64,000 bases of DNA. Origin: Gemmatimonadota bacterium (lineage in GTDB: Bacteria > JBHIER01 > G020348925). The translations under genes and the position numbers were made by a program. The stretch is from the NCBI GenBank assembly GCA_020348925.1, contig CP070758.1:2556259-2620258 (forward strand). The letters run 5' to 3'. Every line of letters begins with the position of its first letter. Position 1 is the stretch's first letter. The notes beneath the pieces were generated by a model. It was not told the DNA's origin. It was given only the letters and a program-made list of their open reading frames with translations, and did no database searches. Positions 298-17,532 of the stretch are shown here, piece by piece.

Positions 298-631
298 TTA
301 CAAAAATTCAAAAAAAGATCTATTCTTACTCTGAGACTTCGTTTTTTGTAAATGCCATATTAGGACTGACCTTTAGCCATTGTCCGCTGAGTATTGAAGT
401 GCAATGTCCGTCTTTTAGCCTCTCTTGCGACGATCCCGAAAGGGATGCGCTCCATGATTGCAGAATCTGCTCAGTGAACGATCACGGATCTCAATATGTT
501 ACTGAGAAGCGATCTTTGACAATCGGACAGCGTTACCCATAGAGGGTTTTAACGGCTGAACGACAAACCACTGGAGTAATAGCTCCAGTATCATTCTGAA
601 AAAGAATTTTCAATTGAAAGGTGGACGTAAA
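298..631. other. Intergenic region with small hairpin, no convincing gene
   Basis: This 334-nt gap holds no gene I can support. An 82-codon frame starts at 294, overlapping the previous stop, but it lacks a ribosome site and resembles no protein I know. A 7-bp hairpin (ACTGGAG / CTCCAGT, 6-nt loop) lies at 570-589 in the leader of the next gene. Confidence 0.5.
516..544 (+). promoter_or_regulatory. Candidate sigma70-like promoter for the LRR/TSP3/dockerin gene
   Basis: A perfect TTGACA (516-521) is followed after 17 nt by ATAGAG (539-544), a weak -10 match. It lies about 90 nt upstream of the ATG at 632. The two promoters further right in the window use the same TTGACA-17 nt layout. The call rests on the -35 box and is tentative. 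Confidence 0.35.
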
Positions 632-3600
632 ATGAAGGACATTTCAAGAGAATTGCTGTATGCGATTGTTGTGATAATGATCTTTGCAACAATTGTAGAT
701 TGGAGTTCCATCTCTTTTGCTCAATGTACGATTACGGTTACGTCACCCTCTGGTGGCGAGAATTGGCGAGAAGACAGTCAACACAGTATCACATGGACAG
801 CAGAGAATTGTGAGAGTGGGGAATTCAGAATTGAATATACAACTGATGGAGGGGGTACTTGGATCGTTGCTGCTACTGTGGGAGAAACCTCACTTATTTG
901 GACAGTACCATATACACCTTCTGATAATTGCATGATCAGAATTTGCTGCGTAGACGCTGATCCTGAATGCTGCAATACAAGTGTAGTATTTTACATCTGG
1001 GAACGGGCCCTGGAAGACCTGTACGTTGCGACAGGTGGGGATTTGTGGGATAGCAATGATTACTGGCTGTCAGAGAGTCACCCGATCTGGGACTGGTATG
1101 GTGTCATTTCACATCGCCACGGATGGGTTGACAGCCTCGATCTGTCACATAATGGACTTACAGGCGTCATACCGCTGGAAATCGGCGACCTTGACTCCTT
1201 GCGGATATTGAACCTTGCAGGAAAGGCACATCCTGATAGCATTCCAAATAACAGATTTTCAGGTGGCATTCCGACTACAATCAAAAACCTGAAATTCTTA
1301 CGGGAACTGGATCTTTCGAACACTCAACTTTCTGGTAGCATTCCACCTGAAATCGGAAGCTTGGATTCACTCCGGAAACTGAGCCTTCATGGCGACAGTC
1401 TCTATAATGGAATTCCCTATCAGATTGGCAATCTGAAGAAACTGGAGATATTGTCGCTTGGAGATAACGTGCTCTCTGGCACGATTCCACCGGAAGTCTG
1501 TAACTTGACGGCGTTGCAAGTTCTCTCCCTCACAGGAAACCGACTATCCGGTTCCATCCCTCTTGGAATAGGTAACTTGACAACTCTGCAGATATTATCA
1601 CTTGGGGGTAATCAGCTCGAAGATTCCATTCGATATGAAATCGGAAATCTGACAGAATTGAAGGTATTGTCACTTGGGGGCAATCTACTCTCAGGTATCA
1701 TCCCGACGAAAATTGTCAACCTGACAGATTTAGAGGCGTTGCAACTTGGCGGTAATCAGCTTACAGGTCCCATTCCACCTGGAATCGGAAGTCTGTCGAA
1801 ATTGAAGGTAATATCGCTGGGAAGTAATATGCTTTCGGGTCCCATTCCGGCTGGAATTAGTAGCCTGACACAATTGGAAGCCTTATATCTATTGGGCAAC
1901 CAACTTTCAGGTTCCATTCCTTCCGGAATAAATAACTTGATAAAATTGAAAGTAATGTACTTAGGGAGCAATCAACTCTCGGGTTCCATACCGGCTGGAA
2001 TCGGCAGCCTGGCGGAAATGGAGAACTTGCACCTTGGTGAAAACCAACTCTCCAGTACCATCCCGTCAAAAATTGGAGACCTGTTAAAATTAAAGAGATT
2101 GTATCTTCAAAATAACCAGTTATCCGGTCCGATCCCTTCAAGTTTCACAAATCTGACGGCTCTAATAGACAGCGTTAGCCTTCATGTCGGTTATAATAAA
2201 TTATTTAGTGATGAACCTACTGTGATTGACTTTCTGAATATAAAAGATCCAGACTGGGCACAGACCCAGACCGTGGCCCCGGCCAATATCATTTGTAGCA
2301 CCATTGAAATCACAAGGGTTGAATTGTCGTGGGACCCCATTCTGTACACGTGGGATAGTGGTGGGTATATCGTCTCCTATGGTTTGGAAATCGGGGGGCC
2401 CTATGATGTCGTTGACACTACTGCAGGCAAAACCGTAACAAACCTGACAGCCTTCGGCCTGAGTAAAAATACACAATACTATTTTTATATAACCACGCAT
2501 ACCCCGCCGCATGGCTTTCAACAGAATGATCTTATCAGCGCCCCAAGTGAAACACTATCAGTAAGAACTCTGCCCGATGCGGATGGAGATGGGATTGCGG
2601 ACGGCGATGATAACTGTCCAGACGATGCCAATCCTGATCAGGGTAATTCGGACACAGACTCTCATGGTGATTTGTGCGACAACTGTCCAAATGAGAACAA
2701 TGAAGATCAGGCTGACGATGATGGTGATGGTGTGGGCGATGCCTGCGACGTCTGCCCTGGCTATGACGACACGCAGGATGGCGACGGTGACGGAGTCCCG
2801 GATGATTGTGACAATTGTCTGAGTGATTACAACCCGGGACAGGAGAACGCGGATGGTGACGCTTTAGGGGATTCGTGCGACAACTGCCCGGAACATTACA
2901 ACGACCCTCCTCAGACGGACTCGGACGGAGACGGGGTTGGGGACCTCTGTGATCTCTGTCCTGGATTTGACGATACCCAGAACGCCGACACGGATACCAT
3001 TCCGAATGGATGTGACAATTGCGATGATGTCTACAACCCCGACCAGGCGAATTCAGATGCCGATACGCTGGGCGATGCCTGCGATAATTGTCCGGATGAT
3101 GACAACGACGACCAGGTCGACGGGGACAGCGACGGAGTGGGCGATGTGTGCGATAACTGCCCATTGGTGCCAAATCCCGGCCAGGGGGACGCCGACGGCG
3201 ACGGAGTAGGAGATCTCTGCGAGACGGACGCCGACGGAGACGGTATCGCCAATGATGAGGACAATTGCATGACCGTCCCGAATCCGGATCAAGCCGATGG
3301 GGATGGCGACGATGTGGGCGATGTGTGCGACAATTGCCCGGCAGTGTTCAATCCCCGCGATGTTGATATTGACGGCGACTTAATTCCTGATCAGCCCGAT
3401 TCAGACGCCGACTCAGTCGGCGATGGCTGCGACAACTGCCCGCTCGATTTCAATCCTATTCAGGAGGATATTGATGGCGATGACATGGGCGATTCGTGCG
3501 ACTACTGCTGGAATGATTTCATGAATGACGAGGATAGTGATGGAGTCTGCGGTGACGTGGACAACTGCCCCAGGATCTCAAATCCCGGCCAGGAGGATGG

Positions 3601-4210
3601 TGACCATGACGGCGTGGGCGATGTGTGCGATGGCTGTCCATCCGATTCGACAAAGACCGAGCCGGGCATCTGTGGCTGTGGCGTGCCTGATACTGACGGG
3701 GACGGTGATGGCCTCATACACTGCGACGACAATTGTCCGGACGAATATAACCCGACTCAGGCCGATGCGGACGGAGACAGTGTTGGCGATGTGTGCGATA
3801 ACTGTCCGGATATTGCCAACGCCGATCAGGCCAATTCGGACAGTGACAGCCTCGGTAATGATTGCGACAACTGTCCGACCGTGTATAATCCTGATCAGGT
3901 GGACAGTGACGGGGACGGGAGAGGCGACGCCTGTGAAGGTCTCAACGGCGATGTAAACGACGACGGGCGGATCGACATTCTGGATGCGCTGGCCTTAATT
4001 GACCACATTTTGGAGATCCAGCCCCTGGATGAATATGCTCTTAGTCTGGCAGACTGTAACGGTGACGGGGATATCGACATTCGGGACGTATTGGGCATCA
4101 TAAATGTTATTCTGGGGATTGGTGAGTGTACGCCGGGAGTCAGCAAACAGGAAACGGTCCATGAGACGACCCCTGAACCCAAGGAGTTTATGAAGCCGCT
4201 AGGGAAATAA
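632..4210 (+). CDS. Secreted LRR / thrombospondin type 3 / dockerin surface protein (1192 aa)
   Basis: The start is ATG 632, preceded by AAAGGTGG; an upstream in-frame TTG at 614 is less likely. A signal peptide covers about residues 1-30. An Ig-like domain of the Kre9/KNH kind follows (ITVTSPSGGENW...ITWT). Next come about 14 plant-type 24-residue leucine-rich repeats (LxxLxLxxNxLSGxIPxxIGxL, ~165-515), capped by a WYGV region. A fibronectin type III-like domain spans ~540-640. Many calcium-binding thrombospondin type 3 repeats (DxDGDGVGDxCDNCP) fill ~645-1095. A type I dockerin with two EF-hand-like loops (NGDVNDDGRIDILD and CNGDGDIDIRD) lies at ~1103-1165. The Asp-rich repeats probably form a rigid, Ca2+-stabilised stalk, with the LRR as the likely binding face. 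No catalytic domain is seen. The role is probably adhesion or scaffold-associated binding. The dockerin links it to the peptidases downstream. Confidence 0.85.
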   Translation: MKDISRELLYAIVVIMIFATIVDWSSISFAQCTITVTSPSGGENWREDSQHSITWTAENCESGEFRIEYTTDGGGTWIVAATVGETSLIWTVPYTPSDNCMIRICCVDADPECCNTSVVFYIWERALEDLYVATGGDLWDSNDYWLSESHPIWDWYGVISHRHGWVDSLDLSHNGLTGVIPLEIGDLDSLRILNLAGKAHPDSIPNNRFSGGIPTTIKNLKFLRELDLSNTQLSGSIPPEIGSLDSLRKLSLHGDSLYNGIPYQIGNLKKLEILSLGDNVLSGTIPPEVCNLTALQVLSLTGNRLSGSIPLGIGNLTTLQILSLGGNQLEDSIRYEIGNLTELKVLSLGGNLLSGIIPTKIVNLTDLEALQLGGNQLTGPIPPGIGSLSKLKVISLGSNMLSGPIPAGISSLTQLEALYLLGNQLSGSIPSGINNLIKLKVMYLGSNQLSGSIPAGIGSLAEMENLHLGENQLSSTIPSKIGDLLKLKRLYLQNNQLSGPIPSSFTNLTALIDSVSLHVGYNKLFSDEPTVIDFLNIKDPDWAQTQTVAPANIICSTIEITRVELSWDPILYTWDSGGYIVSYGLEIGGPYDVVDTTAGKTVTNLTAFGLSKNTQYYFYITTHTPPHGFQQNDLISAPSETLSVRTLPDADGDGIADGDDNCPDDANPDQGNSDTDSHGDLCDNCPNENNEDQADDDGDGVGDACDVCPGYDDTQDGDGDGVPDDCDNCLSDYNPGQENADGDALGDSCDNCPEHYNDPPQTDSDGDGVGDLCDLCPGFDDTQNADTDTIPNGCDNCDDVYNPDQANSDADTLGDACDNCPDDDNDDQVDGDSDGVGDVCDNCPLVPNPGQGDADGDGVGDLCETDADGDGIANDEDNCMTVPNPDQADGDGDDVGDVCDNCPAVFNPRDVDIDGDLIPDQPDSDADSVGDGCDNCPLDFNPIQEDIDGDDMGDSCDYCWNDFMNDEDSDGVCGDVDNCPRISNPGQEDGDHDGVGDVCDGCPSDSTKTEPGICGCGVPDTDGDGDGLIHCDDNCPDEYNPTQADADGDSVGDVCDNCPDIANADQANSDSDSLGNDCDNCPTVYNPDQVDSDGDGRGDACEGLNGDVNDDGRIDILDALALIDHILEIQPLDEYALSLADCNGDGDIDIRDVLGIINVILGIGECTPGVSKQETVHETTPEPKEFMKPLGK

Positions 4211-4246
4211 TTCCTCATGGTAATATAGCCGAATATAGCGGTATAG

Positions 4247-4266
4247 CCGGGTCGGACCAAGGTAAC
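4247..4266 (+). repeat. Partial third copy of the 4516/4796 direct repeat (20 bp)
   Basis: The sequence CCGGGTCGGACCAAGGTAAC matches the left edge of the downstream repeats (GTCGGATCAAGGTAAC and GTCGGGCCAAGGTAAC). After GGTAAC the sequence diverges. It lies 37 nt after the stop of the LRR/dockerin gene. Confidence 0.55.
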
Positions 4267-4515
4267 CTGCTGATAGTCAAAGGATATTGTCCCACATGTA
4301 GGCGTTTACAACCTTAAAACCCCATTTTCAGGGTCGAAATCACTGGTGTAAGCAACCTTCGGCTCTTTTCGCGGAAATGAATTCCCTTCACCATCTACAT
4401 GATACTCTTTGCCTCGGATGCCTGATTTTACTTTCGTCTCTGCCACAAATCCCTTATTTCCAATAGCTCTGCTCTCAGTCCATAGGCTGTCCCGAACAGC
4501 TTCCCTGCCAGCCGG

Positions 4516-4617
4516 GTCGGATCAAGGTAACTGATTGAAATGCAACGAAAATGTGTTGAAAATACTATCTGATTTCGCCTTAGAATGACAATTTTGACAT
4601 GAAAATAAGAGATTTAA
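4516..4617 (+). repeat. ~102-bp direct repeat, copy A
   Basis: This segment aligns along its whole length, without gaps, to 4796-4897, with scattered substitutions. Shared blocks include CAAGGTAACTGATTGA, AAATGTGTTGAAAATAC, CTGATTTCG and CAATTTTGACATGAAAAT. The unit does not look coding. It may be a short mobile or extragenic repeat of the genome. Confidence 0.75.
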
Positions 4618-4648: not shown

Positions 4649-4795
4649 ATCAGGGGATTTGGGGGAAAGGATACGCTTTCCCATAAGGGGTAACAGGATT
4701 TCGATGTGATCTGGCGGAGCATCTACATCCGCCATTTCCCGAAAGCTTTTTAATCGTAATTATAGCCTAACAATTGGATCAAGTAGTATGGCAGT

Positions 4796-4897
4796 GTCGG
4801 GCCAAGGTAACTGATTGATATGCAAGGTAAATGTGTTGAAAATACCCTCTGATTTCGTCTTAGAATAGCAATTTTGACATGAAAATGAGCTATTTAA
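4796..4897 (+). repeat. ~102-bp direct repeat, copy B
   Basis: This is the second copy of the unit at 4516-4617, offset by 280 bp. Conservation begins abruptly at GTCGG(A/G) and ends at TTTAA, so the repeat has defined edges. Confidence 0.75.
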
Positions 4898-6031: not shown

Positions 6032-7999
6032 ATGTCCGATAACAAGAATATCGAGAAGAGTAAAGGCTGCGCGGATCCGGACGGCAATCCCAATATCCCG
6101 TATGGCCCCGAACAGAAGCCGTGGGGGGAGTTGGTGCCGGGGGGCGCGGATATTACCGGGCCCAGTGAGGACCCAATCGATGTGTACCCGCGTGTGCCGC
6201 CACCAAATTTGACAGAAAAATTTCCCGAGATTCACTACAGGAAGTTTGAAATCCCACCAAAGGGTCTGACAGACGGCCAACGAAAGGATGCTCTGAAGGA
6301 GTTCAGGGATTTTGCGGAGGAGCAGCACAGGTGGTTTACCGGTTACCAGACCAACCAGAACCAGCCATACTCTCTGCGCCTCTCGTGGCTTCTGGATATG
6401 CATACGAACAATGTTGGCGATCCCTTCCAAACCGGCATATTCACGCTGAATACCAAGTTCTGCGAGCGCGCTGTCCTGGACTACTTTGCCGCGTTGTGGA
6501 ATGCTCCGTGGCCGCACCACGACGATACCATCACAGAGAGGTATCCGGACCGTTACTGGGGCTATGTGTTGTCCATGGGCTCCACCGAAGCAAATGTCTA
6601 TGGGCTCTTCAACGCGCGCGACTACCTCAAGGGTCGTGCGCTCATTGAGGACCCTGAAACGGAGCCGCTGGAGAAGAAATTCATGTACGCCGATCCGCTT
6701 TCCAAGCCCGACAACCCGAATGCCTACAAACCCATCGTCTTCTATTCCCAGGATACGCACTATTCGGTGGTCAAGGCCGTCCGTATTTTGGAGTTGACCA
6801 CGTTCTACCAGGAAGGGCGCATGAAGTATCCGGGCCAATGTCCCATCACCGAGAATGGGGAATGGCCCAAGGAGGTCCCGTCGCAGGATATTGATAACGG
6901 CAATTCCGGGACGATCGATGTTTCAGCCCTGAAGGAGCTCGTTCACTTCTTCGTCAAGCGCGGTTACCCTCCCCTGATTGTGCTCAACTTTGGCTCGACG
7001 TGGAAGGGCGCTTATGACGAAGTGCCTGCCGTAAACACGATGCTCAGGGATTTGCGCTATGAGTTCCCCTGGGTGTGGGAGCGAAGGGTTCACTACGATC
7101 CCGACAGGCCCAAGCTCTATGACGTACGGCGTGGTTTCTGGCTGCACGTGGACGGTGCCCTGGGCGCGGGCTACATGCCCTTCGTCGAGATGGCCTATAA
7201 TCAGGGCAAGATCGAGTGGCGGGGTCCGATTTTCGATTTCCGCAACGAGGCGGTCATGAGCATCTGTACGTCAATGCACAAGTGGTTCGGTGCCCCGTGG
7301 CCTGGGTCGGTCTACCTGACGCGCACCGGCTACCAGCTCAGGCCGCCAACCACGCCCAGTTACATTGGCGCGGCGGATACAACCCTGGGCGGCTCACGAA
7401 ATGCGTTCTCGTCGGTGATCTTCTGGGACTACTTGTCGCGCCATAGCTACCAGGACAGCATGCATGAGGTCCTTGAGTGCGAGGAGGCTGCAAGCCACCT
7501 GGTGAGTGAATTGAAAAGCCTGGAGAGTGACCTGAAGAAAAAATTCGGTGACGAGGTCGATTTGTGGATCGCCCGCTCCAAGCTGTCCCTGGCCGTTCGC
7601 TTCCGCCTGGTGAACCCGACTATCAAATACAAGTTTACGGTCGACTCCGAGCGCCTGTGGGTACCCATTTCCGAAACTGAGGAACAGGAGCGCACGTACT
7701 CGCATGTCTACGTCATGCAGTCATTGATGGCAGAAAAAAAGAGGCCGGTGAAGGATGAAAAGAGGAAACCGGAGGCGGTGGAAAGGTATAGAATCATCGA
7801 CGAATTGATGAAGTCCATCCGGAAGGCCTGCAAGGATGACTGGCACCATGCGTTTCCCGAATGGGACGGCGACCAGCCCAATCCCGGACGCACGAAACCG
7901 ATCACCGCACCCGCTCGCGCCAAGGACAACGTCATCATGTTCGTCCCGCATGAAGGCCGGGGCCTGGGCTCGTTTGTGCATCCGTCCAAGCGCGGTTAG
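6032..7999 (+). CDS. PLP-dependent group II amino acid decarboxylase, histidine-decarboxylase-like (655 aa)
   Basis: The order and spacing of motifs match PLP decarboxylases of the histidine decarboxylase branch. NNVGDPFQ is followed by GSTEANVYGL in the phosphate-binding region. FYSQDTHYSVVKAVRIL has His243 stacking on the cofactor. HVDGALGAGY has Asp374, which pairs with the pyridine nitrogen. SMHKWFGAPWPG has Lys417, which forms the Schiff base. The enzyme should remove the carboxyl group of an amino acid to give an amine and CO2 in the cytoplasm; no signal peptide is present. It is clearly longer than typical bacterial histidine decarboxylases, with an N-terminal extension of about 100 residues, so histidine is only one candidate substrate. 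The gene stands alone with its own strong ribosome site, 235 nt before the channel gene. The family is certain; the substrate is not. Confidence 0.85.
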   Translation: MSDNKNIEKSKGCADPDGNPNIPYGPEQKPWGELVPGGADITGPSEDPIDVYPRVPPPNLTEKFPEIHYRKFEIPPKGLTDGQRKDALKEFRDFAEEQHRWFTGYQTNQNQPYSLRLSWLLDMHTNNVGDPFQTGIFTLNTKFCERAVLDYFAALWNAPWPHHDDTITERYPDRYWGYVLSMGSTEANVYGLFNARDYLKGRALIEDPETEPLEKKFMYADPLSKPDNPNAYKPIVFYSQDTHYSVVKAVRILELTTFYQEGRMKYPGQCPITENGEWPKEVPSQDIDNGNSGTIDVSALKELVHFFVKRGYPPLIVLNFGSTWKGAYDEVPAVNTMLRDLRYEFPWVWERRVHYDPDRPKLYDVRRGFWLHVDGALGAGYMPFVEMAYNQGKIEWRGPIFDFRNEAVMSICTSMHKWFGAPWPGSVYLTRTGYQLRPPTTPSYIGAADTTLGGSRNAFSSVIFWDYLSRHSYQDSMHEVLECEEAASHLVSELKSLESDLKKKFGDEVDLWIARSKLSLAVRFRLVNPTIKYKFTVDSERLWVPISETEEQERTYSHVYVMQSLMAEKKRPVKDEKRKPEAVERYRIIDELMKSIRKACKDDWHHAFPEWDGDQPNPGRTKPITAPARAKDNVIMFVPHEGRGLGSFVHPSKRG

Positions 8000-8234
8000 C
8001 GTCATACTGGAACTGATTGGATGACTGTCAGGTCTTCTGCCTGAGGAATAAAAAGGAGACACTCTTTACAATACAATTTACCACATAAGGTTACATGTAT
8101 TTTTTCTAAAGGCGGCAATCTTCTTTTCAGATTATCGTGGTTCGGTTGAAAGATTTGAGTGAAAAAGAACCATAGATTTTGAATCCCAGATGGACGAAAG
8201 AAAAAATGTATTTTCCAAATAGGAGGATGAGAAC
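8000..8234. other. Leader of the dCache-channel gene
   Basis: This 235-nt AT-rich spacer contains no gene. AGGAGGATGAG at 8221-8231 is the ribosome site for the GTG at 8235. No clear promoter or terminator is visible. Confidence 0.4.
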
Positions 8235-9065
8235 GTGATCCTGTGGATTCTAAGTTTCTTGGTCTTGGCTCTTCTGCTTCTTTTCATTGATTACAGAAAG
8301 TTGGCAGCTCTCAAAAAACTGGTATTGCCGTTTTTCATCGTATTGTGTCTGTCCTGCCTGATTTTAACAATAATCCTCATATACGCGCACCTTAGATATA
8401 AGAACGAAATCATTCAATCGACCAAGTCCAGCTTGATCAGCCTCACGGTCGAAGCAAGAAAAGGGATAGAAAGAATCCTGCAGGAAACTATGGACGCGGC
8501 CGAATCCATCGCGGATGACGTGACCTCGGGAAAACTGAAAGACGACGAGATACTCGACAGGCTCAAAACAACAGCAGAGCAAAACAAAAATTTTTACGGA
8601 ATCAACATAGCTTACAAACCATATGCCTATTCACCTGACAGGAAATTGTATTCACCGTACTTTGGAAAAAAAGGTGGCGTGCTTACGTTTTCACAACTTG
8701 ATAAGATTTACGACTACACCAAACCGGAGTACGAATGGTACACGCTCGCCATGGAGAAGGGACCGAGGTGGTGCGAACCATATTTCGGTGAGGCCGGGCT
8801 TACCTTGATCAGTACCTACTCTGCTCTTTTCTATGAAACCGATACTGCAGCGCAGAGAAAAGATCCCATAGGGGTCGTGACGATTGATATCTCCCTGGAT
8901 CAGATTGGGAAGATCATTCGCTCCCTGGACCTGGGACCGAGTGGCTTCGGGGCGCTGTTGTCTCAAAAAGGACGCTATCTGTACCATCCCAATAACGAGT
9001 ACGTGTTGAGCGGAAAGACGATCCTCGAGTTGGGCGAGGAGCTCAACGACGCAGACAGATTATAA
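8235..9065 (+). CDS. dCache-pLGIC fusion, N-terminal part (TM hairpin + dCache sensor), ended by in-frame TAA
   Basis: GTG 8235 follows AGGAGGATGAG. Two hydrophobic helices (residues 3-19 and 29-52) with a basic loop between them (YRKLAALKK) precede a periplasmic double-Cache domain (~55-276). It has the usual landmarks: NFYGINIAY, KPEYEWYTLA, EPYFGEAG, GVVTIDISLD and LYHPN. Amino-acid-binding dCache domains carry RxWY at the ligand site; here the motif reads YEWY (Tyr166, Trp168, Tyr169), so the carboxylate-binding Arg is missing. Asp218 lies in the conserved GVVxxD strand. The frame stops at TAA 9063-9065 in the middle of the membrane-distal-to-proximal Cache fold. It resumes at once in the same frame (next entry), so this is one gene split by a single stop. 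The cause could be assembly error, readthrough or a recent mutation. Confidence 0.8.
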   Translation: MILWILSFLVLALLLLFIDYRKLAALKKLVLPFFIVLCLSCLILTIILIYAHLRYKNEIIQSTKSSLISLTVEARKGIERILQETMDAAESIADDVTSGKLKDDEILDRLKTTAEQNKNFYGINIAYKPYAYSPDRKLYSPYFGKKGGVLTFSQLDKIYDYTKPEYEWYTLAMEKGPRWCEPYFGEAGLTLISTYSALFYETDTAAQRKDPIGVVTIDISLDQIGKIIRSLDLGPSGFGALLSQKGRYLYHPNNEYVLSGKTILELGEELNDADRL

Positions 9066-10427
9066 TTGGGCGAAAAAATATTGAAAGGGGAGCGGGGGAT
9101 TCTCGACCATGTCAGCTCCACAACCGGTCTGTCCGCATGGCTGATTTACGAACCCGTGCCCCTCAACGGCTGGTCGTTGAATAATACCTTTATCAAAAGC
9201 GATATAGAGATGAATGTGGATTCCCTCCGAAAACAGCTGGTGCGGATATGTGTTGTTGCACTCCTGTTCCTCTGGTCTCTGGCGTCAATTGTATTGGGAG
9301 TTCATCGAGGGAATGAGAAAAGACTTTGGTTGATGTCTGCAGTAACTGCCGTTCTATTTTTGGCTGGAATCGGATACGTCTGGCACTTAGCTCTGAGTTT
9401 CAACAGGGATAATGATGAAGATACTGTAAGAATCACAACCCAGCCGACCTTGAACACTCTCATGAACAAGTATACCGAAGAGTGCGCTGGACGACACACC
9501 GAGCCGCCGGTGTATATTCGCACCGGCATTTTTCTCGAATCGGTCAGGCTTACCGGTGCCTGTGACGTAGCCGTTTCGGGTTTCATCTGGCAAACATACA
9601 GTGACAGCATGCACGGGGGCTTGGCCCGTGAGTTTCAGATCGGCGATGCGCAAGATGTAAAAGTCACCGAGATCTATCGTCACAAGGAAGGGGATGAGGA
9701 GATCCTTCGATGGTCTTTTCAAGCAAGTCTGACCGAAGGTTTTGACGATTCCGAATATCCGCTGAATCAGGAGACAATCTCGATTCCACTCCTACACAAA
9801 GATTTAAACCATAACGTGGTCTTGGTTCCCGATCTGAGGGCCTATAGGGTGACCAGCCCAACCTCTCTTCCGGGCCTGGAGAAAGATATACTCGTTCCAG
9901 GATGGACGGTGATGCGATCCTTTTTCAATTTCAGAAAAAGGACGTACGATACTGATTTCGGAGTGGAGCGATCGGTCCTCAAGGAGAATTTTCCCGCACT
10001 CGCCTTGAGCGTGGTTGTCAGGAGAAATTTTCTGGATTCCTTCGTTTCATGTCTTACGCCCCTCATCGTTGTCGCCCTTCTTCTTTTCAGTATATTCTTT
10101 CTATCGACAAAAGATCCTGAGAAGATAAAGCTGCTCGGTGTGAGTCCTGGACGTTTTTTAGGGTTTTGCGCAGGTCTTTTCTTCGTCGTGGTGTTCAGTC
10201 ACATCGGAACGAGGGAGGCGGTTTCCGCAAAAGAGATCTTCTACCTGGAGTATTTCTACCTTGTGATGTATCTGACGCTGCTGTGGGTCTCGGTGAACGC
10301 CATTTTACATATCCTGGCGGATAAGATTCTCTTTATCCAGTACAGTGATAATCTCATTTCGAAGCTGCTCTATTGGCCCGTACTGCTTGCGCTCCTGTTC
10401 GGGATCACCGTAGTATTCTTTTATTAA
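9066..10427 (+). CDS. dCache-pLGIC fusion, C-terminal part: end of dCache, TM hairpin and pentameric ligand-gated ion channel
   Basis: This part continues the previous frame after TAA 9063-9065. LGEKILKGERGI to WSLNNTF (1-41) finishes the Cache domain. Helices ~58-79 and 88-111 flank a basic loop (RGNEKR). Residues ~147-320 look like the beta-sandwich of Cys-loop receptors: YIRTGIFLESV, GFIWQTYSD, YPLNQETISIPL in the place of FPxDxQ, and VLVPDL. Next is the VVVRR pre-M1 segment, then four helices: M1 ~325-347 (with LTPLIVV), M2 360-382, M3 391-413 and M4 430-452. As in other bacterial pLGICs, the disulfide Cys pair is absent. Basic loops predict a topology with both sensor domains in the periplasm. 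The protein is probably a homopentameric channel opened by a small ligand, perhaps an amine. No ribosome site precedes TTG 9066, so independent translation is unlikely. Confidence 0.8.
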   Translation: MGEKILKGERGILDHVSSTTGLSAWLIYEPVPLNGWSLNNTFIKSDIEMNVDSLRKQLVRICVVALLFLWSLASIVLGVHRGNEKRLWLMSAVTAVLFLAGIGYVWHLALSFNRDNDEDTVRITTQPTLNTLMNKYTEECAGRHTEPPVYIRTGIFLESVRLTGACDVAVSGFIWQTYSDSMHGGLAREFQIGDAQDVKVTEIYRHKEGDEEILRWSFQASLTEGFDDSEYPLNQETISIPLLHKDLNHNVVLVPDLRAYRVTSPTSLPGLEKDILVPGWTVMRSFFNFRKRTYDTDFGVERSVLKENFPALALSVVVRRNFLDSFVSCLTPLIVVALLLFSIFFLSTKDPEKIKLLGVSPGRFLGFCAGLFFVVVFSHIGTREAVSAKEIFYLEYFYLVMYLTLLWVSVNAILHILADKILFIQYSDNLISKLLYWPVLLALLFGITVVFFY

Positions 10428-10643
10428 GAGCACATCTGGAGACTCTGTGAAATGTATACGTTACCTGCGATGAAAGGCGGTCATGGTGGAAAAGACAGTG
10501 ATGGTAAAAATGGTGACGGTATCCTTATTGCGTGTGGGATAATGAGGATCGTCTGACTCTGTTCATTCCCAAATGATAGTTATTACAAGAGAATTTCTGA
10601 ATGAAAATACGTTTTCGTGAAATTGGAGAGAAAGGAGATTCAC
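10428..10643. other. Spacer between channel gene and tyrosine decarboxylase gene
   Basis: The 216 nt hold no supported gene. A 34-codon frame at 10452-10556 has no ribosome site. AAAGGAG at 10631-10637 is the ribosome site of the next gene. Confidence 0.4.
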
Positions 10644-12554
10644 ATGAAAAAGACAGACGTTGGTGCCCTGTTTTTGGGGCCGAAATCTGAAAATCACAAG
10701 TTTTTTAAGGAGATGCTCAATTTTCTCATCGATGAGCATATCCACTGGCGGCGGGATTTTCATCCTGATGATAAACCATACATAAGCTTCCCTGAACAAC
10801 ATGAGAAGCTGTTCCAGAGTACTATTGACAGGACGCAGGATGTATTGCTTAATCTTTCTTCCATGCTGAAGGCCAGTTCGGAGCCGTGGTTTTCCCCACG
10901 CTACCTGGGACAGATGAACAGCGATATTCTGATGTGTGCCGCCCTGGCCTATATGGCCACTGTTCTCTACAACCCGAATAACTGCGCCTACGAAGGTTCG
11001 CCGGCAACCACTCCAATGGAAATTGAAGTAGGGAAACAACTCGCAGAAATGCTGGGATATAATCTTGAAAATGCTTGGGGGCACATTACGGCCGACGGTA
11101 CGATTGCAAACTATGAGGGCCTGTGGTTCATGAGAAACATGAAATCATTCCCCCTTGCCATCCGAGAGGTGGACCCGAATTTTCCTGGCGTGAAAGGGAA
11201 GACGGAATGGCAGCTGTTGAACATGCCCACTCGCCGTATCCTGCAACTGATCACGGATACAGAGAAAGTTGGGAAAAATCAAGAGTTCTTTGAACGATGT
11301 CGCGACAGGTCTGTTCGTGGTACTGGAGAGACCGATGCCCTGGGCGTGCTTCTTGTCCCCCAGAGCAAACATTATTCCTGGACAAAAGCGGTGGATGTCC
11401 TCGGGATTGGTCGGCATAACCTCATACCCATTGACGTTACAGATAATTTTCGGATGGATATCGATGAGTTGAAAAAGGAGATTGAGAACCAAGCGGCTCA
11501 CAAGATTCCGATTCTGGGCGTCGTCTCCGTCGTAGGCACGACTGAGGAGGGAGCGGTTGATGAAGTCCATAGAGTTGCAGAGCTCCGCAGGAGGTACGAA
11601 AAACAGGGGGTTTCATTCTACTACCATCTCGATGCAGCCTACGGCGGGTATACCCGTACCATCTTTTTCGATGAAGAGAACAGTTTCATGCACTATGACG
11701 GCTTGAAGACGTTTTTACACGAGCAGGGCGTTATCCACCAGGATGTTGCGTGGCCTCCGAAGGACGTGTATGAGGCCTATAAAGCCATGCCTGAGGCTGA
11801 TTCCATCACAATCGATCCCCATAAGATGGGGTACGTTCCCTATCCAGCCGGGGCCATTGTCGTCAAGGATAAACGGGTCCGGGATCTTGTTTCCTACTTC
11901 GCTCCGTATGTCTTTGCTGAAGAGAAAGGGGAGGAAGATCCTCAGCTTCTCGGTGCATATATCATGGAGGGCTCAAAACCGGGTGCTGCGGCTGCATCTG
12001 TCTGGGCTGCGCATCGACTCGTCCCGCTCAATGTGACGGGGTACGGCAGACTTATCGGAAGGAGTGTTGAGGTGGCCCATCGATTCTACAATTCACTTCA
12101 CAAGCAAAGATCTTTCAAGGTTTCATATGAGGATAAGAAAGGGAAGAAGAGATATCGAACATTCAAGGTCGTGCCCCTAACCAGACCCGACTTTAATATG
12201 GTCTGCTGGGCATTTAACGAAGTGGGAAATACCAGCCTGAGGAGGATGAATGGCCTTACTTTAGCACTTTTTAAGAAATTTCAGTATATTGATGGTCCTG
12301 TCTATTATGACGACTTCTTGACATCTCATACCGAATTCACCCTTGAAAACTATGGCCAAGCCCCGGAAACATTCCTGAGAAAACTGGGCATTTCTACAAA
12401 AGGATACACTGATAAGCAAGGTGTCTGGGTGCTCCGCGCTTCCCTCTTGACCCCTTTTCTGGATGTCGAGAAGGTCTATAAAGACTATTGGACACGGTTT
12501 ATGAAAACCATAAAGAAGACCATAGCCGAAGTAACATCTGTACCGAGAAAATGA
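10644..12554 (+). CDS. tdc: Tyrosine decarboxylase (PLP-dependent, TyrDC family, 636 aa)
   Basis: ATG 10644 follows AAAGGAG by 6 nt and is preferred over an in-frame GTG at 10617. Length and motif order closely follow the Enterococcus/Lactobacillus tyrosine decarboxylases as I recall them: RYLGQMNSD, YEGSPATTPMEIEVG, GWGHITADGTIANYEGLW (written in that family with minor changes), VPQSKHYSWTKAVD with His243, HLDAAYGGY with Asp330, and SITIDPHKMGYVPY with the Schiff-base Lys394. The late block GAYIMEGSKPGAAAASVWAA is also shared. The expected reaction is L-tyrosine to tyramine plus CO2, with L-DOPA or phenylalanine as possible extra substrates. The enzyme is cytoplasmic. In the Firmicutes this gene pairs with a tyrosine/tyramine exchanger; no such transporter is seen here. 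Instead it sits between a ligand-gated channel gene and a channel fragment. Confidence 0.85.
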   Translation: MKKTDVGALFLGPKSENHKFFKEMLNFLIDEHIHWRRDFHPDDKPYISFPEQHEKLFQSTIDRTQDVLLNLSSMLKASSEPWFSPRYLGQMNSDILMCAALAYMATVLYNPNNCAYEGSPATTPMEIEVGKQLAEMLGYNLENAWGHITADGTIANYEGLWFMRNMKSFPLAIREVDPNFPGVKGKTEWQLLNMPTRRILQLITDTEKVGKNQEFFERCRDRSVRGTGETDALGVLLVPQSKHYSWTKAVDVLGIGRHNLIPIDVTDNFRMDIDELKKEIENQAAHKIPILGVVSVVGTTEEGAVDEVHRVAELRRRYEKQGVSFYYHLDAAYGGYTRTIFFDEENSFMHYDGLKTFLHEQGVIHQDVAWPPKDVYEAYKAMPEADSITIDPHKMGYVPYPAGAIVVKDKRVRDLVSYFAPYVFAEEKGEEDPQLLGAYIMEGSKPGAAAASVWAAHRLVPLNVTGYGRLIGRSVEVAHRFYNSLHKQRSFKVSYEDKKGKKRYRTFKVVPLTRPDFNMVCWAFNEVGNTSLRRMNGLTLALFKKFQYIDGPVYYDDFLTSHTEFTLENYGQAPETFLRKLGISTKGYTDKQGVWVLRASLLTPFLDVEKVYKDYWTRFMKTIKKTIAEVTSVPRK

Positions 12555-12563
12555 GATCGATGC

Positions 12564-12818
12564 GTGCGGGGTACTGGTGGGAAAACAGTCCGAAGATCAT
12601 CGAACTTTCCCAAAATATCCTATCCGACCTTTATGGATGGGATCATTAGCGGGGCATACATTTTTATGGCCCTGGCTGTGCTCGAAAATGTCACCTCCCA
12701 CGTTTTGCGAACGCGACATATGGGGAAACAAGCCCTGAGACTCGATCGCCTTTCAAGGTGGTTGTTCCCCATAGCGTATCTCACCTCGTGGATTGTTATG
12801 ACGCTCGTGTTTATGTAG
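12564..12818 (+). pseudogene. Fragment of a second pentameric ligand-gated ion channel (M3-M4 only)
   Basis: The 84-codon frame lies three codons after the tyrosine decarboxylase stop and in the same frame. It has no ribosome site. Its product begins, after a few unrelated residues, with NFPKISYPTFMDG, the M2-M3 loop of pLGICs (compare LPKTPYxTxxD in GLIC). A hydrophobic M3 follows (IISGAYIFMALAVLENV), then a short basic linker and RLDRLSRWLFPIAYL...MTLVFM, the typical pLGIC M4 pattern (D+xSRxxFPxxF). The extracellular domain, M1 and M2 are missing, so it cannot form a channel by itself. It is not a close copy of the channel at 8235-10427. The most likely origin is a deletion that removed the 5' part of a former channel gene next to the decarboxylase. 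A functional two-helix peptide is possible but less likely. Confidence 0.7.
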
Positions 12819-13356
12819 AATTACCTTTTCTTGATCCCCTTTGATATGAGACCGTGAAACGGTGGCCCTCACTGTTGGTTCGCTCCCCTTGATGAATCAA
12901 ACGCCGTTGCGTTATACTATCGATGGCTTGCTTATGAGACTGGTCTTAAGTGCCCGTCCCGTCTCGATTGAATTATCGATCCATAAAAGTTTGAATGAGT
13001 TATACCCATCAGAATTTCATTGTCAACGTATCATCCCAATAGAACAACAAAAAGCTTGACATGGGAAATAATTATCATAATATAATGATGTGTATTTTTA
13101 ATATGTTGAGGGATTGCTTGTATGTCAAGTTCAATGGCAAGGAATACATCATTAACGCTTCCCCTCGGGATTGTGAGTAACTCTCTGTAAGTGACAGATA
13201 GTTACGAATGCGTTTGATTATGAAGATCGATGATATCATGAACGTCTTTTTCCCGATTGACCGAAAAATGTGTGGAATCCCATTCTTTTTGCCTCAGGAA
13301 AAAAATAAGGAGCATCATCCGTTTGGATCCGTTGAACCGTAATTGCGGGGGGAACG
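12819..13356. other. Intergenic region upstream of the giant sensor gene
   Basis: This stretch of 538 nt has no supported gene. A 65-codon frame at 12862-13059 lacks a ribosome site and recognisable features. The region carries the promoter candidate at 13056-13083 and ends in a G-rich ribosome site (GGGGGGAAC) before GTG 13357. Confidence 0.4.
13056..13083 (+). promoter_or_regulatory. Sigma70-like promoter candidate for the giant sensor gene
   Basis: TTGACA (13056-13061) is followed after 16 nt by TAATAT (13078-13083), within an AT-rich, partly palindromic segment (ATTATCATAATATAATGATG). This leaves a leader of about 265 nt to GTG 13357. Confidence 0.5.
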
Positions 13357-16300
13357 GTGCCTAAAAAGAAGAGATCATCAGACCTTGCAAGGTCGCAAAA
13401 AGTGGCTGCGAAACTGCATCCTTCCCCTTGGATTCGCTATTTCGCTTCGATTCTCCTTCTTATCCTGGTTGGATTGGGGGGGTTCTATTTTATCATCGTC
13501 CAGGAGCGGAAGGACTTGCAGTCGCAATATCTGCTCCGTGTTCTCAGCACCGCCGGCCAGAATGTGGGAGAGACCATCACTGGTCTGCGGGGTAATGTTA
13601 AGAAGGCAGCAGAGACCAAGAAAGAAACCGACAAGACACTTCAAAAAACCATTGAGGGAAAACTGGCACTTATTCCCAATCTGATCAAGTATCCACAAAG
13701 CGACTTTGCCACATGGTCTGAATGGATAACACTGAAAGATCCTGACAGCTTGGAGAATCCCAAAGTCGATATAACGATCAATTACGAAAATGGAGAATAC
13801 GTTGTTACTTTTACGGTCAAAGCATGCACTCTCAAAACCGAAAAGAAAAGTTTCTCAGATACCCGTGAAAAATTCAAAGATGTTTTCCTGACCCACGCCA
13901 GACTCAGAGATCTGATTTTGCCCTCGCTTCCTGATGATGTCTTCGATGGGGGCGTTGTCGTGGCCCGAAGAAACGAAATGGTTCTCCTGCAAAAGGGTGG
14001 TGCAGCCGCCCACCTCGTGCAACTACCGAGAGCGAAAGTGACAGAGGAAGAGGCGTCCTCAGGCGTCACTGATTCCTGCGTCACCACCCAGATCCGCGAC
14101 GTCGAGATCGCCGGCGTCAAATACAAATTGTTTCTTCAACCCTTTTGTATCCCGGTGGATGTAAGATGGGTCGATTCAACTCAGGACACCACCCGCCATG
14201 CACCGGAAAAGGTCTGGTTTATGGGAGGACTTATCCCAAACGCGACCTTCAGGGCGAAAACAATGGCTGTCTCTCCGACCTTCGTCCTGTTCGTTGTGTT
14301 CCTGCTTGTCCTGGGGTTGCTCTGCCTGCCCTTTCTGCGAATCCGCTTCATTGGGTTGCGAGAAGGTCTGCGGGCCCACGATGTGTTGGTGCTGGCCGTC
14401 GCACTCATGGTGGGTTGTTCTCTCGTCACTTTTGCCGTCATCCATCTTTTCACAGCTTTGACGGAAAGGGAGACACGAGCACGTCACCTGACCATCATTG
14501 CCCGTAGAATCGATTGTTTGGTTTCGTCGGAACTGGACTCGTTGCACTTGGAACTTATCGAGTTGACGAACACGGCCAACACTCTGCGCAGACAAGGCAC
14601 CAGGCCCAACATTCTTGTTGAGGAAAAGGTCAGAAATCCCCATTTCGAGATGGTCTGGGGAATGGACAAAAACGGTTGGCAGACTTGGAAGTGGAGCGTT
14701 AAGAGTACGACGACTCCTGTGTCGAGTTTTCCTGAAAGAGAATATTTCAGGTATGCAAGAGATTATGATCTGAATCTGTTCTCTCCCCTTCACCATACAG
14801 GACGAAATGTGTTAGATGATACGACCAAGGACGTAAAATTTCTCAGGGGACGATATATCCAGTCGATTCGCTCAAAAACCACCGGTGAAGTGTACGCAAT
14901 TCTCTCGCTTCGAATGTCGAGTGAGGACTTCACAGGTTCGATTGTTTCCGTGATCGAGTCGCCGATGTTGAGCCTGATCGATCCCGTCATGCCCCCGGGA
15001 TACAGTTTCGCCGTCATCGATCGGAAGGGTGACGTACAATTCCATTCCGACAAGGATCGGAATCTGAGAGAGAATTTTTTTGTGGAACTCGGTTCGGACG
15101 AAGACGTGAGGGCCGCTGTTTTTTCAGGAACCGAGAAGAACGTGCGATTCAAATATCGAGCCGAGCCGCGAAGCGCTGTGGTAACACCCCTGACCCATAC
15201 ACCATGGACCCTCGTCGTATTTACGGACGACCGAATACTGAGCCATCTGGATCTTGAAACGATGACGTTGTCCCTCAGCCTTTTCGGCGCGTATCTGATT
15301 CTCTTTCTATTGTTCTGTCTCGTTCTGTCTCTGGTGTCCCTTGCAATCGCCTCATTTCGCCGTCGAGATAGAAACGATTCAGGGAAAATTCGTTCCGTAG
15401 GAGCGATCGACAGAATAGCCCGCTGGTGCGGGCGATGCGACATTGCCCCTGGCGAAGCCCGTTCCATGTGGTTTTGGCCTGATGGAACAAAGCAAAAACA
15501 TTACAGAATTCTGCTCTGGATCATGGCTTCGTTTATCGCCTTGTGGTGTGTCGGTTCTCAATGGCGACCCGCGTGGATGGTCTGGATATCACCGGCTCTG
15601 TCCCTGATTCTGATAGTGGTAGTATATGTTCTTATCCGATGGAAAAATGTTTCTCGTGGCGAAACGGATAAGGCTGGTGAGAGAATGACATCCCTGAAGG
15701 TGCGGTGGTTGTACGTGGTGACCATCATAGGATTTCTTTTCAATATCGCCATCCTGCCCGCTCTCAGTTTTTATCATCTGATCCATTCCGAAGAGGTCAT
15801 CCTGTACACAAAAATGCACCAACTCCAACTGGCTGAGTCTTTACGGAATAGGGTCGATCGCCATGTTGCGCGTTATCGAAAAATCGGGCTGAGCGATGAA
15901 AACGAACAATGTGTTCGGTTACGGCTCGCGCTTTCGGATATGCGTGAACTTTCTATCCAGAACGCACCCGATGTCTATACGTTGAACTCGTATGTCAAAG
16001 AATCCAGGAACGATTCTCAGTCTACGCCCCGGCGCGACAAGCATCAACCATCCGAAGAGCGTTTCAAACAGGTGTGGATCGACCGATTAAGTCAGGCGGG
16101 ATTGTTACCGAGTTACAACGAATTCGCCGCCGTGACCAGAACCCTGACCAGCTCACAGGACGGAGATCACAACAGAAGCTGGCAGTTCGTATCGCCAGAT
16201 AATTTGCTGAGATTGAACATCACGGATTTTCGGCCGTCCGTTCCTGTAGGCAGAATCGATAAGACACGCACCATTGAGAATACCCATCAGATCAACCTGA

Positions 16301-17532
16301 CCATAGAGACTCCCCTCGATTTTCAAAGGAGCGTGAATCCGTACTTGATTCTTCTTGCTCTCATCTTTGCCGTCATCGTGCTTCTGGTGATTGTTTGGAA
16401 TGTCGTCCGTATTGTCTTTGTGGCCAACGTCAGGTACCCGCGATCTCTTGACGGAGAGTGTTTTATCAAGGGTGCGGATGATTCTCTCAGGAAGCTCATA
16501 TTGCGCATACGATTTCCTCGGAAAGACAGCCCCTCGTCCATCTCCCAATTTCCATTTGAGATTGGCATACAGGACATCCGTGATGCTGAGTCGGCTCAGG
16601 ATATTCTTTCTCGTGTTCGGAACTCGCAAATCCAGGAAATCGTGCTGACCAACTTTGATTACGATCTGGACGATCCGCACATTGCACACAAAAAACTTGA
16701 GCTCCTCGAGGGCCTGGCAACGTTCAAGGAGAAACGAATCGTCATTGAGTCATCGATCGACCCCCTCTATCTCTTCACCGCGCGCGCACATGATTTTTGG
16801 GTTGACAAAGAGAAACAGCACATATCACTCGATCGTTGGTCCATGGTTCTACAGAAGTTCACGAAGTTACGCTGGAGAGCCACCGAAGGCGAATTTGATG
16901 CGTTGCGAAATAAATTCAACAAGGAGCTTGAGCAGCTCGAAAATTTCAAAAACATGTCGTCGGAGGTTCGAAGCGCCCTTGTCTCCGAGGGGTGGCCAAA
17001 CCGGATTCTCAGGGATTACGCAGAAACGTTAGTATCGTGCAAAGAACTCCAAGGGTATACCGCACATGATGTCGTCGACCAATTTCTCGACCTGGCCACG
17101 GCCCATTACCGGAGGATCTGGGCGACCTGCAGTACCGATGAGAAGGTTCTCTTGTATCGACTTGCCCAAGAAGGATTTGTGAATTGGCGAATGAGGAATA
17201 CGCTGCGCAGCTTGATTCGGCGAAGAATTGTCGTGGCCGCTCCGAACTTCCGGCTCATGAACGAGAGCTTCCGGCGGTTCGTCTTCAGAGCGGAGCGTCC
17301 CGAAATTTTCCAGGAATGGGAAAAGGCGGTTGAATCAAGCATGTGGTCCAGAATCAAAAAACCGCTCATTTTCTCCGGAATTGCTCTGGCCGTGTTCTTT
17401 TTTGCAACTCAGAGAGAGGTTTTCAATCGATCACTAGGAATGCTGGCAGCTGTGATGACCGGTGCGCCGGTTCTTATAAAGATCATCGGAATGTTGCTGC
17501 AGAATCGCCAGGTGACCTCCACCCATGACTGA
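13357..17532 (+). CDS. Giant multi-pass membrane sensor with Cache-like domains and NTPase/winged-helix-like tail (1391 aa)
   Basis: GTG 13357 follows a G-rich ribosome site. About eight membrane helices (~24-46, 309-327, 342-364, 636-666, 716-735, 741-761, 784-808, 996-1020) separate three extracytoplasmic segments. The second (~365-634) is clearly Cache-like: FPEREYFRYARDY, GYSFAVIDRKGDVQFHSD and TPWTLVVF. The first (~47-305) and third (~809-994) are less clear. The cytoplasmic tail (~1021-1335) resembles a P-loop NTPase without a visible Walker A. EIVLTNFDYDLDD (~1093) looks like a Walker B strand, and RIVIESSIDPLYLF like the next strand. A winged-helix-like segment follows (STDEKVLLYRLAQEGF, ~1260-1310), then a C-terminal helix pair (~1336-1381). 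No kinase, GGDEF or methyl-accepting domain is seen, so the output is unknown. It lies downstream of the amine genes, behind its own promoter. The architecture is described from sequence; the function is not established. Confidence 0.7.
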   Translation: MPKKKRSSDLARSQKVAAKLHPSPWIRYFASILLLILVGLGGFYFIIVQERKDLQSQYLLRVLSTAGQNVGETITGLRGNVKKAAETKKETDKTLQKTIEGKLALIPNLIKYPQSDFATWSEWITLKDPDSLENPKVDITINYENGEYVVTFTVKACTLKTEKKSFSDTREKFKDVFLTHARLRDLILPSLPDDVFDGGVVVARRNEMVLLQKGGAAAHLVQLPRAKVTEEEASSGVTDSCVTTQIRDVEIAGVKYKLFLQPFCIPVDVRWVDSTQDTTRHAPEKVWFMGGLIPNATFRAKTMAVSPTFVLFVVFLLVLGLLCLPFLRIRFIGLREGLRAHDVLVLAVALMVGCSLVTFAVIHLFTALTERETRARHLTIIARRIDCLVSSELDSLHLELIELTNTANTLRRQGTRPNILVEEKVRNPHFEMVWGMDKNGWQTWKWSVKSTTTPVSSFPEREYFRYARDYDLNLFSPLHHTGRNVLDDTTKDVKFLRGRYIQSIRSKTTGEVYAILSLRMSSEDFTGSIVSVIESPMLSLIDPVMPPGYSFAVIDRKGDVQFHSDKDRNLRENFFVELGSDEDVRAAVFSGTEKNVRFKYRAEPRSAVVTPLTHTPWTLVVFTDDRILSHLDLETMTLSLSLFGAYLILFLLFCLVLSLVSLAIASFRRRDRNDSGKIRSVGAIDRIARWCGRCDIAPGEARSMWFWPDGTKQKHYRILLWIMASFIALWCVGSQWRPAWMVWISPALSLILIVVVYVLIRWKNVSRGETDKAGERMTSLKVRWLYVVTIIGFLFNIAILPALSFYHLIHSEEVILYTKMHQLQLAESLRNRVDRHVARYRKIGLSDENEQCVRLRLALSDMRELSIQNAPDVYTLNSYVKESRNDSQSTPRRDKHQPSEERFKQVWIDRLSQAGLLPSYNEFAAVTRTLTSSQDGDHNRSWQFVSPDNLLRLNITDFRPSVPVGRIDKTRTIENTHQINLTIETPLDFQRSVNPYLILLALIFAVIVLLVIVWNVVRIVFVANVRYPRSLDGECFIKGADDSLRKLILRIRFPRKDSPSSISQFPFEIGIQDIRDAESAQDILSRVRNSQIQEIVLTNFDYDLDDPHIAHKKLELLEGLATFKEKRIVIESSIDPLYLFTARAHDFWVDKEKQHISLDRWSMVLQKFTKLRWRATEGEFDALRNKFNKELEQLENFKNMSSEVRSALVSEGWPNRILRDYAETLVSCKELQGYTAHDVVDQFLDLATAHYRRIWATCSTDEKVLLYRLAQEGFVNWRMRNTLRSLIRRRIVVAAPNFRLMNESFRRFVFRAERPEIFQEWEKAVESSMWSRIKKPLIFSGIALAVFFFATQREVFNRSLGMLAAVMTGAPVLIKIIGMLLQNRQVTSTHD

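What the first reader, a model, noticed from the sequence alone, without database searches (positions are those of the whole stretch)
6032..17532. Candidate bacterial biogenic-amine making and sensing locus
Seen: two PLP amino acid decarboxylases (histidine-decarboxylase-like and tyrosine-decarboxylase-like) alternate with a dCache-pLGIC fusion, a second pLGIC fragment and a giant Cache-type sensor, with no unrelated gene between them. Known: such decarboxylases make histamine- or tyramine-like amines; ELIC, a bacterial pLGIC, is opened by primary amines; dCache domains bind amino acids and amines. Inference: the cell makes an amine and reads it, or a foreign amine, through a channel and a Cache sensor, a layout resembling transmitter synthesis plus receptor.
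Basis: partly seen in the sequence, partly recalled or inferred. Interest (0 to 1): 0.85.

Follow-up and report, generated by a model that had tools for sequence, protein, structure and literature searches.

The report
Decarboxylases beside broken receptor-type channels
A bacterium with no close sequenced relatives keeps two intact amine-making enzymes next to its only two genes of the nerve-receptor channel family, but both channel genes are broken and the arrangement was not found in other genomes, so it is at best the relic of a system that made and sensed an amine.

Summary
The cluster is real. 6032-7999 is an intact group II PLP decarboxylase nearest L-methionine decarboxylase, not histidine decarboxylase. 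10617-12554 is an intact tyrosine-decarboxylase-type enzyme. Between them lies a dCache plus pentameric-channel (pLGIC) gene cut by an in-frame TAA (9063-9065); profile tests confirm the channel. Directly after the second enzyme lies only the M3-M4 end of a second, GLIC-like pLGIC. The 'giant Cache sensor' is an orphan multi-pass protein; Cache identity was not confirmed. These are two of the genome's three PF00282 genes and the only two pLGIC loci found; uniform placement in one 7-kb stretch has probability about 4e-8, calculated after seeing the cluster. Against a working transmitter-receptor pair: both channel genes are broken, gaps are about 190-235 bp, no exporter is adjacent, and no MCP signalling domain was found in the genome. 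None of 24 other pLGIC loci checked has a decarboxylase of this kind nearby, and none of 9 other TyrDC/MetDC loci has a pLGIC. Cache-pLGIC fusions (2004) and a decarboxylase beside ELIC (2011) are already published. Best reading: a decaying amine-making and amine-sensing locus; amino-acid catabolism fed by the adjacent secreted-peptidase array is a close rival.

The parts
6032..7999 (+). Intact group II PLP decarboxylase, 655 aa, L-methionine-decarboxylase-like
   Evidence: 7cif 411 bits, E 8e-122; HDC equivalog 175 bits, cut-off 305; PF00282 36.7 bits. GC3 0.735 against 0.51-0.60 in the other genes measured.
8235..9065 (+). First part of the channel gene: membrane segments and most of a dCache domain, ending at an in-frame TAA (9063-9065)
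   Evidence: MCP-like_PDC_1 63 bits, dCache_1 45.1 bits; stop in frame with the next ORF; homologues continue without a stop here.
9066..10427 (+). Second part of the channel gene: end of the dCache domain, two membrane segments, pLGIC ligand-binding domain and four channel membrane segments
   Evidence: pLGIC HMM 67.6 bits, E 3e-20; hhalign 99.2%; GLIC chimeras in PDB E 6e-4; membrane segments.
10617..12554 (+). Intact tyrosine-decarboxylase-type PLP enzyme, 645 aa (a likelier start, after a good ribosome-binding site, is the ATG at 10644)
   Evidence: TIGR03811 740 bits, cut-off 905; 7cwx 616 bits; 49% identical to a Photobacterium protein.
12555..12818 (+). Remnant of a second, GLIC-like pLGIC: M2-M3 linker to end of M4
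   Evidence: GLIC E 4e-7, LGIC_1 29.8 bits, A3 profile positions 252-321 of 323; no further piece in the intergenic regions scanned.
13357..17532 (+). Orphan 1391-aa multi-pass membrane protein, possible sensor; membership in the locus uncertain
   Evidence: About ten predicted membrane segments; no family, PDB or plasmid match and only one marginal hit in 385 other genomes.

Best explanation
The locus is what remains of an amine-making and amine-sensing module. Two PLP decarboxylases, taken to be cytosolic, turn amino acids (one aliphatic, probably methionine-like; one aromatic, probably tyrosine) into primary amines. An amine that leaves the cell, or a similar foreign one, would be caught outside by the dCache and ligand-binding domains of the fused receptor channel and by a second GLIC-like channel, letting ions flow. 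In this genome the enzymes are intact but both channel genes are disrupted, so the sensing arm is probably lost or reduced. Shown: identity and integrity of the enzymes, pLGIC and dCache identity, both disruptions, clustering. Inferred: substrates, amine as ligand, export, and the functional link between enzymes and channels.
For: Two of three PF00282 genes and both pLGIC loci found in 5.04 Mb lie within 7 kb, about 4e-8 under uniform placement. The two channels are from different pLGIC branches, so a simple tandem duplication does not explain the pair. All genes are on one strand. The Cache pocket lacks the carboxylate-binding Arg and keeps W168, Y169, D218 (PMC10104139). ELIC, opened by primary amines, also has a decarboxylase gene in its operon (PMC3119659).
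Against: No such neighbourhood at 24 other pLGIC loci or 9 other decarboxylase loci. Both channels broken. Gaps of about 190-235 bp, so no tight operon. First decarboxylase has a different codon composition (GC3 0.735), perhaps a later arrival. No exporter adjacent. The probability was calculated after the cluster was seen.
Confidence: 0.42

Rival explanations
1. The decarboxylases serve amino-acid catabolism (proton consumption, pH or energy balance), fed by the secreted peptidases encoded just downstream. The channel genes are unrelated passengers in a decaying stretch.
For: Downstream 17964-56907 encodes secreted peptidases, most with dockerins: M28 repeated, M1, M14, C25, and a peptidyl-arginine deiminase. 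Both enzymes are intact while both channels are broken. No linkage of decarboxylases with pLGICs elsewhere. TyrDC elsewhere sits in catabolic operons.
Against: It does not explain why the only two pLGIC loci found, from different branches, lie beside two of the three decarboxylases. The usual partners of a tyramine operon (antiporter, tyrS, nhaC) are absent here.
Confidence: 0.38
2. The Cache-pLGIC senses an imported nutrient or other solute, as its transporter-linked relatives may do, and its place beside decarboxylases is accidental.
For: In Vibrio sp. THAF64 the Cache-pLGIC homologue follows a solute-binding protein gene and a permease gene; Tasneem et al. reported PBP-II and Cache neighbours of pLGICs (PMC549065).
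Against: No transporter gene was identified between 4.2 and 17.5 kb here; the Cache pocket has lost the canonical amino-acid carboxylate contact.
Confidence: 0.12
3. The stop at 9063-9065 is a sequencing or assembly error, or translation restarts after it, and the channel (whole or without its Cache domain) is functional.
For: The downstream frame stays open for 453 codons with intact pLGIC landmarks; in-frame start codons follow the stop; the other large genes of the window are intact, so errors are rare but possible.
Against: No good ribosome-binding site directly before the restart; the second channel is truncated independently, which suggests real decay.
Confidence: 0.25

Closest known systems
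ELIC of Dickeya/Erwinia chrysanthemi with the amino-acid decarboxylase gene in its operon (PMC3119659)
   Same: A bacterial pLGIC gene next to a PLP amino-acid decarboxylase; primary amines proposed as ligands.
   Different: Here two decarboxylases of other subfamilies (MetDC-type, TyrDC-type) and two pLGIC genes, one fused to dCache and both disrupted; no tight operon; no ligand data.
Cache-fused bacterial pLGICs (ART-LGICs) described by Tasneem et al. 2004 (PMC549065)
   Same: Cache sensor domain N-terminal to the pLGIC ligand-binding domain and four membrane segments.
   Different: The reported examples have solute-binding, Cache or symporter neighbours, not decarboxylases; the window copy has an in-frame stop.
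GLIC (Gloeobacter proton-gated channel)
   Same: The fragment 12555-12818 aligns with GLIC from the M2-M3 linker to the end of M4.
   Different: Ligand-binding domain, M1 and M2 are missing.
Bacterial tyrosine decarboxylase operons (Enterococcus, Tetragenococcus, Photobacterium)
   Same: TyrDC about 45-49% identical over nearly its full length.
   Different: No antiporter, tyrS or nhaC beside it (compare); counterpart of H98 is Gln.
Streptomyces L-methionine decarboxylase (7cif)
   Same: Alignment over residues 56-567 with 411 bits.
   Different: Longer N- and C-terminal ends; substrate not tested.

Membership tests
Pentameric ligand-gated ion channel (9066-10427) | Sequence homology over ligand-binding domain and channel segments | tested here: met
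   HMM of four independent pLGICs E 3e-20; hhalign 99.2%; PDB GLIC chimeras E 6e-4.
Pentameric ligand-gated ion channel (9066-10427) | Four C-terminal membrane segments after an extracellular domain | tested here: met
   Hydropathy segments 603-621, 636-654, 676-694, 711-729 of the read-through.
Pentameric ligand-gated ion channel (9066-10427) | Pentamer, ion conduction, gating ligand | not testable with these tools
   AlphaFold monomer pLDDT 44; no experiment.
Pentameric ligand-gated ion channel (9066-10427) | Intact reading frame for the whole Cache-channel protein | tested here: not met
   In-frame TAA at 9063-9065.
GLIC-type pLGIC (12555-12818) | Complete ligand-binding domain and M1-M4 | tested here: not met
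   Only profile positions 252-321 of 323 present.
dCache_1 amino-acid sensor (dCache_1AA) | Arg equivalent to PctA R126 that binds the carboxylate | tested here: not met
   Counterpart is Y166 in the alignment to PctA.
dCache_1 amine sensor (dCache_1AM) | Aromatic pair and Asp (PctD F188, Y189, D235), other motif residues (W155, M215, S217, R103) | tested here: inconclusive
   W168, Y169, D218 present; the other positions could not be aligned with confidence. PMC10104139 reports that single mismatches abolish binding.
Histidine decarboxylase (NF002748) | Score over the equivalog cut-off | tested here: not met
   175 bits against 305 for 6032-7999.
L-methionine decarboxylase type (6032-7999) | Full-domain similarity to the characterised enzyme; substrate | tested here: inconclusive
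   411 bits over 512 residues; the residue changed in the 7cig variant is conserved in the alignment; substrate not testable.
Bacterial tyrosine decarboxylase (10617-12554) | Full-length match including the C-terminal domain and key active-site residues | tested here: met
   TIGR03811 740 bits (below its cut-off of 905), PF21391 130 bits; counterparts of H241, K392, Y398, S586 present, H98 is Gln (positions counted, roles from PMC4904194).
Tyramine (tdc) operon | Adjacent tyrosine/tyramine antiporter, tyrS, nhaC | tested here: not met
   Present in Tetragenococcus and Photobacterium, absent here; permeases lie elsewhere.
Cache-type sensor (13357-17532) | Recognisable Cache domain | tested here: inconclusive
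   No Pfam Cache match, hhalign to this clade's Cache profile 0.3%, AlphaFold pLDDT 34; a Cache-like pattern by eye in the second loop only.

The most novel reading that the evidence does not exclude
The ancestor of this lineage had a compact transmitter locus in which two decarboxylases made two different amines and two different pLGIC-type receptors, one with an added dCache amine pocket, read them: a bacterial parallel to transmitter synthesis plus ionotropic receptor.
Probability: 0.2. Interest if true: 0.85.

Novelty: new variant of a known kind. Interest (0 to 1): 0.42.

Why it matters
What bacterial pLGICs do, and what opens most of them in nature, is poorly known. A second independent case, after ELIC, of pLGIC genes beside amino-acid decarboxylases would point to amines made by the cell or its neighbours as natural ligands. 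Because both channel genes are disrupted and the arrangement is not conserved in what could be searched, this locus alone cannot carry the claim; intact homologues elsewhere offer a direct test.

Tried and rejected
AlphaFold of the read-through channel with one homologue (pLDDT 44) and of the second loop of the giant protein alone (pLDDT 34) was too poor for a fold search, so none was run. Pfam Neur_chan_LBD finds nothing in this genome, and its control genomes were silent too; family profiles built here were needed. The giant protein has no relative in plasmids and one marginal hit in 385 other genomes. Considered and set aside: a recoded TAA (the same gene ends at a TAA and neighbouring genes end normally); the two channels being a tandem duplicate (different branches); chemotaxis as output (no MCP signalling domain in the genome); further channel pieces in the 4.2-6.0-kb gap (none). 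Literature searches for gene-neighbourhood studies of Cache-pLGICs found nothing beyond the two papers cited.
Full report
What is there. The window lies in a 5.04-Mb single-contig genome with no close relative among the genomes held. From 6.0 to 17.5 kb all genes are on the + strand. 6032-7999 encodes a 655-aa group II PLP decarboxylase. Its best solved relative is the L-methionine decarboxylase of Streptomyces (7cif, 411 bits, residues 56-567). Against the histidine decarboxylase equivalog it scores 175 bits, below the cut-off of 305. 10617-12554 encodes a 645-aa enzyme that matches bacterial tyrosine decarboxylases end to end (TIGR03811 740 bits, below its cut-off of 905; 7cwx 616 bits; 49% identical to a Photobacterium protein). 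Positions counted from the alignment show the PLP lysine and the counterparts of H241, Y398 and S586 of the L. brevis enzyme (roles in PMC4904194). H98 is replaced by Gln; the alanine mutant there kept about 40% activity.

The channel. 8235-9065 and 9066-10427 are one frame cut by TAA. The first part carries most of a dCache domain. The second carries its end, two membrane segments and a region with no convincing Pfam hit. That region is a pLGIC. The family alignment compared with four bacterial pLGICs gives 99.2% probability, E 1.3e-19. An HMM of those four hits it at E 3e-20. The family profile finds GLIC chimeras in the PDB at E 6e-4. The predicted order is membrane segments, Cache, two membrane segments, ligand-binding domain, M1-M4, which would place both sensor domains outside. 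Six relatives, roughly 25-35% identical, in other families' genomes read through the region where the window has its stop. One of them is itself interrupted, between M2 and M3, by what looks like a transposase gene.

The second channel piece. 12555-12818 begins directly after the stop codon of the second decarboxylase, in the same frame. It matches GLIC from the M2-M3 linker to the end of M4 (E 4e-7). It fits the classical pLGIC profile and not the Cache-fused one, and no other piece of it lies in the intergenic regions scanned.

The giant protein. 13357-17532 is a 1391-aa multi-pass protein. It has no Pfam family over cut-off, no PDB match and no plasmid match, and one marginal hit in 385 other genomes. 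Segment by segment, neither Pfam nor profile comparison finds a Cache domain. The second loop looks Cache-like by eye, which is not a test. I leave it as a possible sensor.

Is the cluster more than chance? The genome has three PF00282 genes (the third, 569721-571196, resembles aromatic amino-acid decarboxylases by eye) and two pLGIC loci found. Two and two of these fall within 7 kb. Under uniform placement two of three decarboxylases fall within 4.6 kb with probability 0.0055, and all four in such a stretch with about 4e-8. This was computed after seeing the cluster and ignores gene islands. It argues against plain coincidence better than it proves function.

Is the neighbourhood conserved? 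In a sample of 386 genomes the pLGIC profile rang in 14 including this one, the TyrDC-type enzyme in 6 including this one, and the MetDC-type enzyme only here. I fetched 17 pLGIC loci outside the window and 7 more from plasmid records; two of these seven, from Streptomyces, rest on tblastn alone. No group II decarboxylase was found in any flank by tblastn with three queries, or in annotation where present. Several flanks are cut short by contig ends. With 0 of 22 profile-confirmed loci the 95% upper bound on linkage is about 13%. Five TyrDC loci from the sample, two from plasmid records (Photobacterium, Tetragenococcus) and two MetDC loci from Nostoc plasmids have no pLGIC. Elsewhere pLGIC genes stand beside solute-binding and permease genes (Vibrio) or CheW/MCP genes (Azospirillum), in line with Tasneem et al. 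(PMC549065). TyrDC elsewhere stands with transporters, tyrS and, in Tetragenococcus, nhaC. None of these partners is here. The one published parallel I found is the amino-acid decarboxylase in the ELIC operon (PMC3119659).

Could the Cache domain sense an amine? In the alignment to PctA the carboxylate-binding R126 of amino-acid sensors corresponds to Y166, while W128, Y129, Y144 and D173 correspond to W168, Y169, Y183 and D218. According to PMC10104139, amine sensors do not conserve that arginine and share the aromatic pair and the aspartate. The remaining motif positions could not be aligned with confidence. A canonical amino-acid sensor is therefore unlikely; an amine sensor is possible but unproven.

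How it most likely works. The decarboxylases, taken as cytosolic because no signal sequence is evident, make an aliphatic and an aromatic amine. In an ancestor these, or similar outside amines, were probably read by the two channels. In the sequenced genome the receptors are broken. The chief rival is amino-acid catabolism: directly downstream, 17964-56907 encodes secreted peptidases, most with dockerins (M28 repeated, M1, M14, C25), and a peptidyl-arginine deiminase, an obvious source of free amino acids. The genome shows no MCP signalling domain, so chemotaxis is not the likely output. The evidence separates the two readings only weakly.

Verdict. Enzymes and channels are real, the clustering is unusual, and standard family models miss the channel. 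Each ingredient is known, and the special claim, a working make-and-sense circuit, is not supported in this genome.

Noticed in passing
window 17964-56907: A run of about a dozen secreted proteins, most with C-terminal dockerins: M28 peptidases (four confirmed, one of them cut short at 24301-25188; further similar ORFs not scanned), M1, M14, C25 and a Porphyromonas-type peptidyl-arginine deiminase.
   Followed up: partly
window 13357-17532: A 1391-aa multi-pass membrane protein with three large loops and a C-terminal soluble part, without any recognised family or convincing relative in 385 genomes.
   Followed up: partly
window 4511-4617 and 4791-4897, with a shorter copy at 4245-4287: An intergenic direct repeat of 107 bases, 86% identical between copies, 280 bases apart, in a 1.8-kb gap without long genes.
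   Followed up: no
L030 9495-12880: A Cache-pLGIC gene in another genome is interrupted between M2 and M3 by what looks like a transposase gene: a second broken member of this clade.
   Followed up: no
L074 8835-11744 and L075 7071-10562: Very long ORFs (969 and 1163 aa) with a pLGIC match and an N-terminus that looks like a PBP-I amino-acid-binding domain, as in the known PBP-I fusions.
   Followed up: no
L088 9782-14280 (Azospirillum sp. B510 plasmid): A pLGIC gene annotated as hypothetical protein directly before a CheW gene and an MCP-type gene: context for a chemotaxis role of some bacterial pLGICs.
   Followed up: no
window 59996-62137: A CHASE2 plus adenylate/guanylate cyclase protein next to an MscS-type channel gene at 58478-59725.
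   Followed up: no
window 614-4210: A secreted protein with leucine-rich repeats, about ten thrombospondin type 3 repeats and a dockerin.
   Followed up: no
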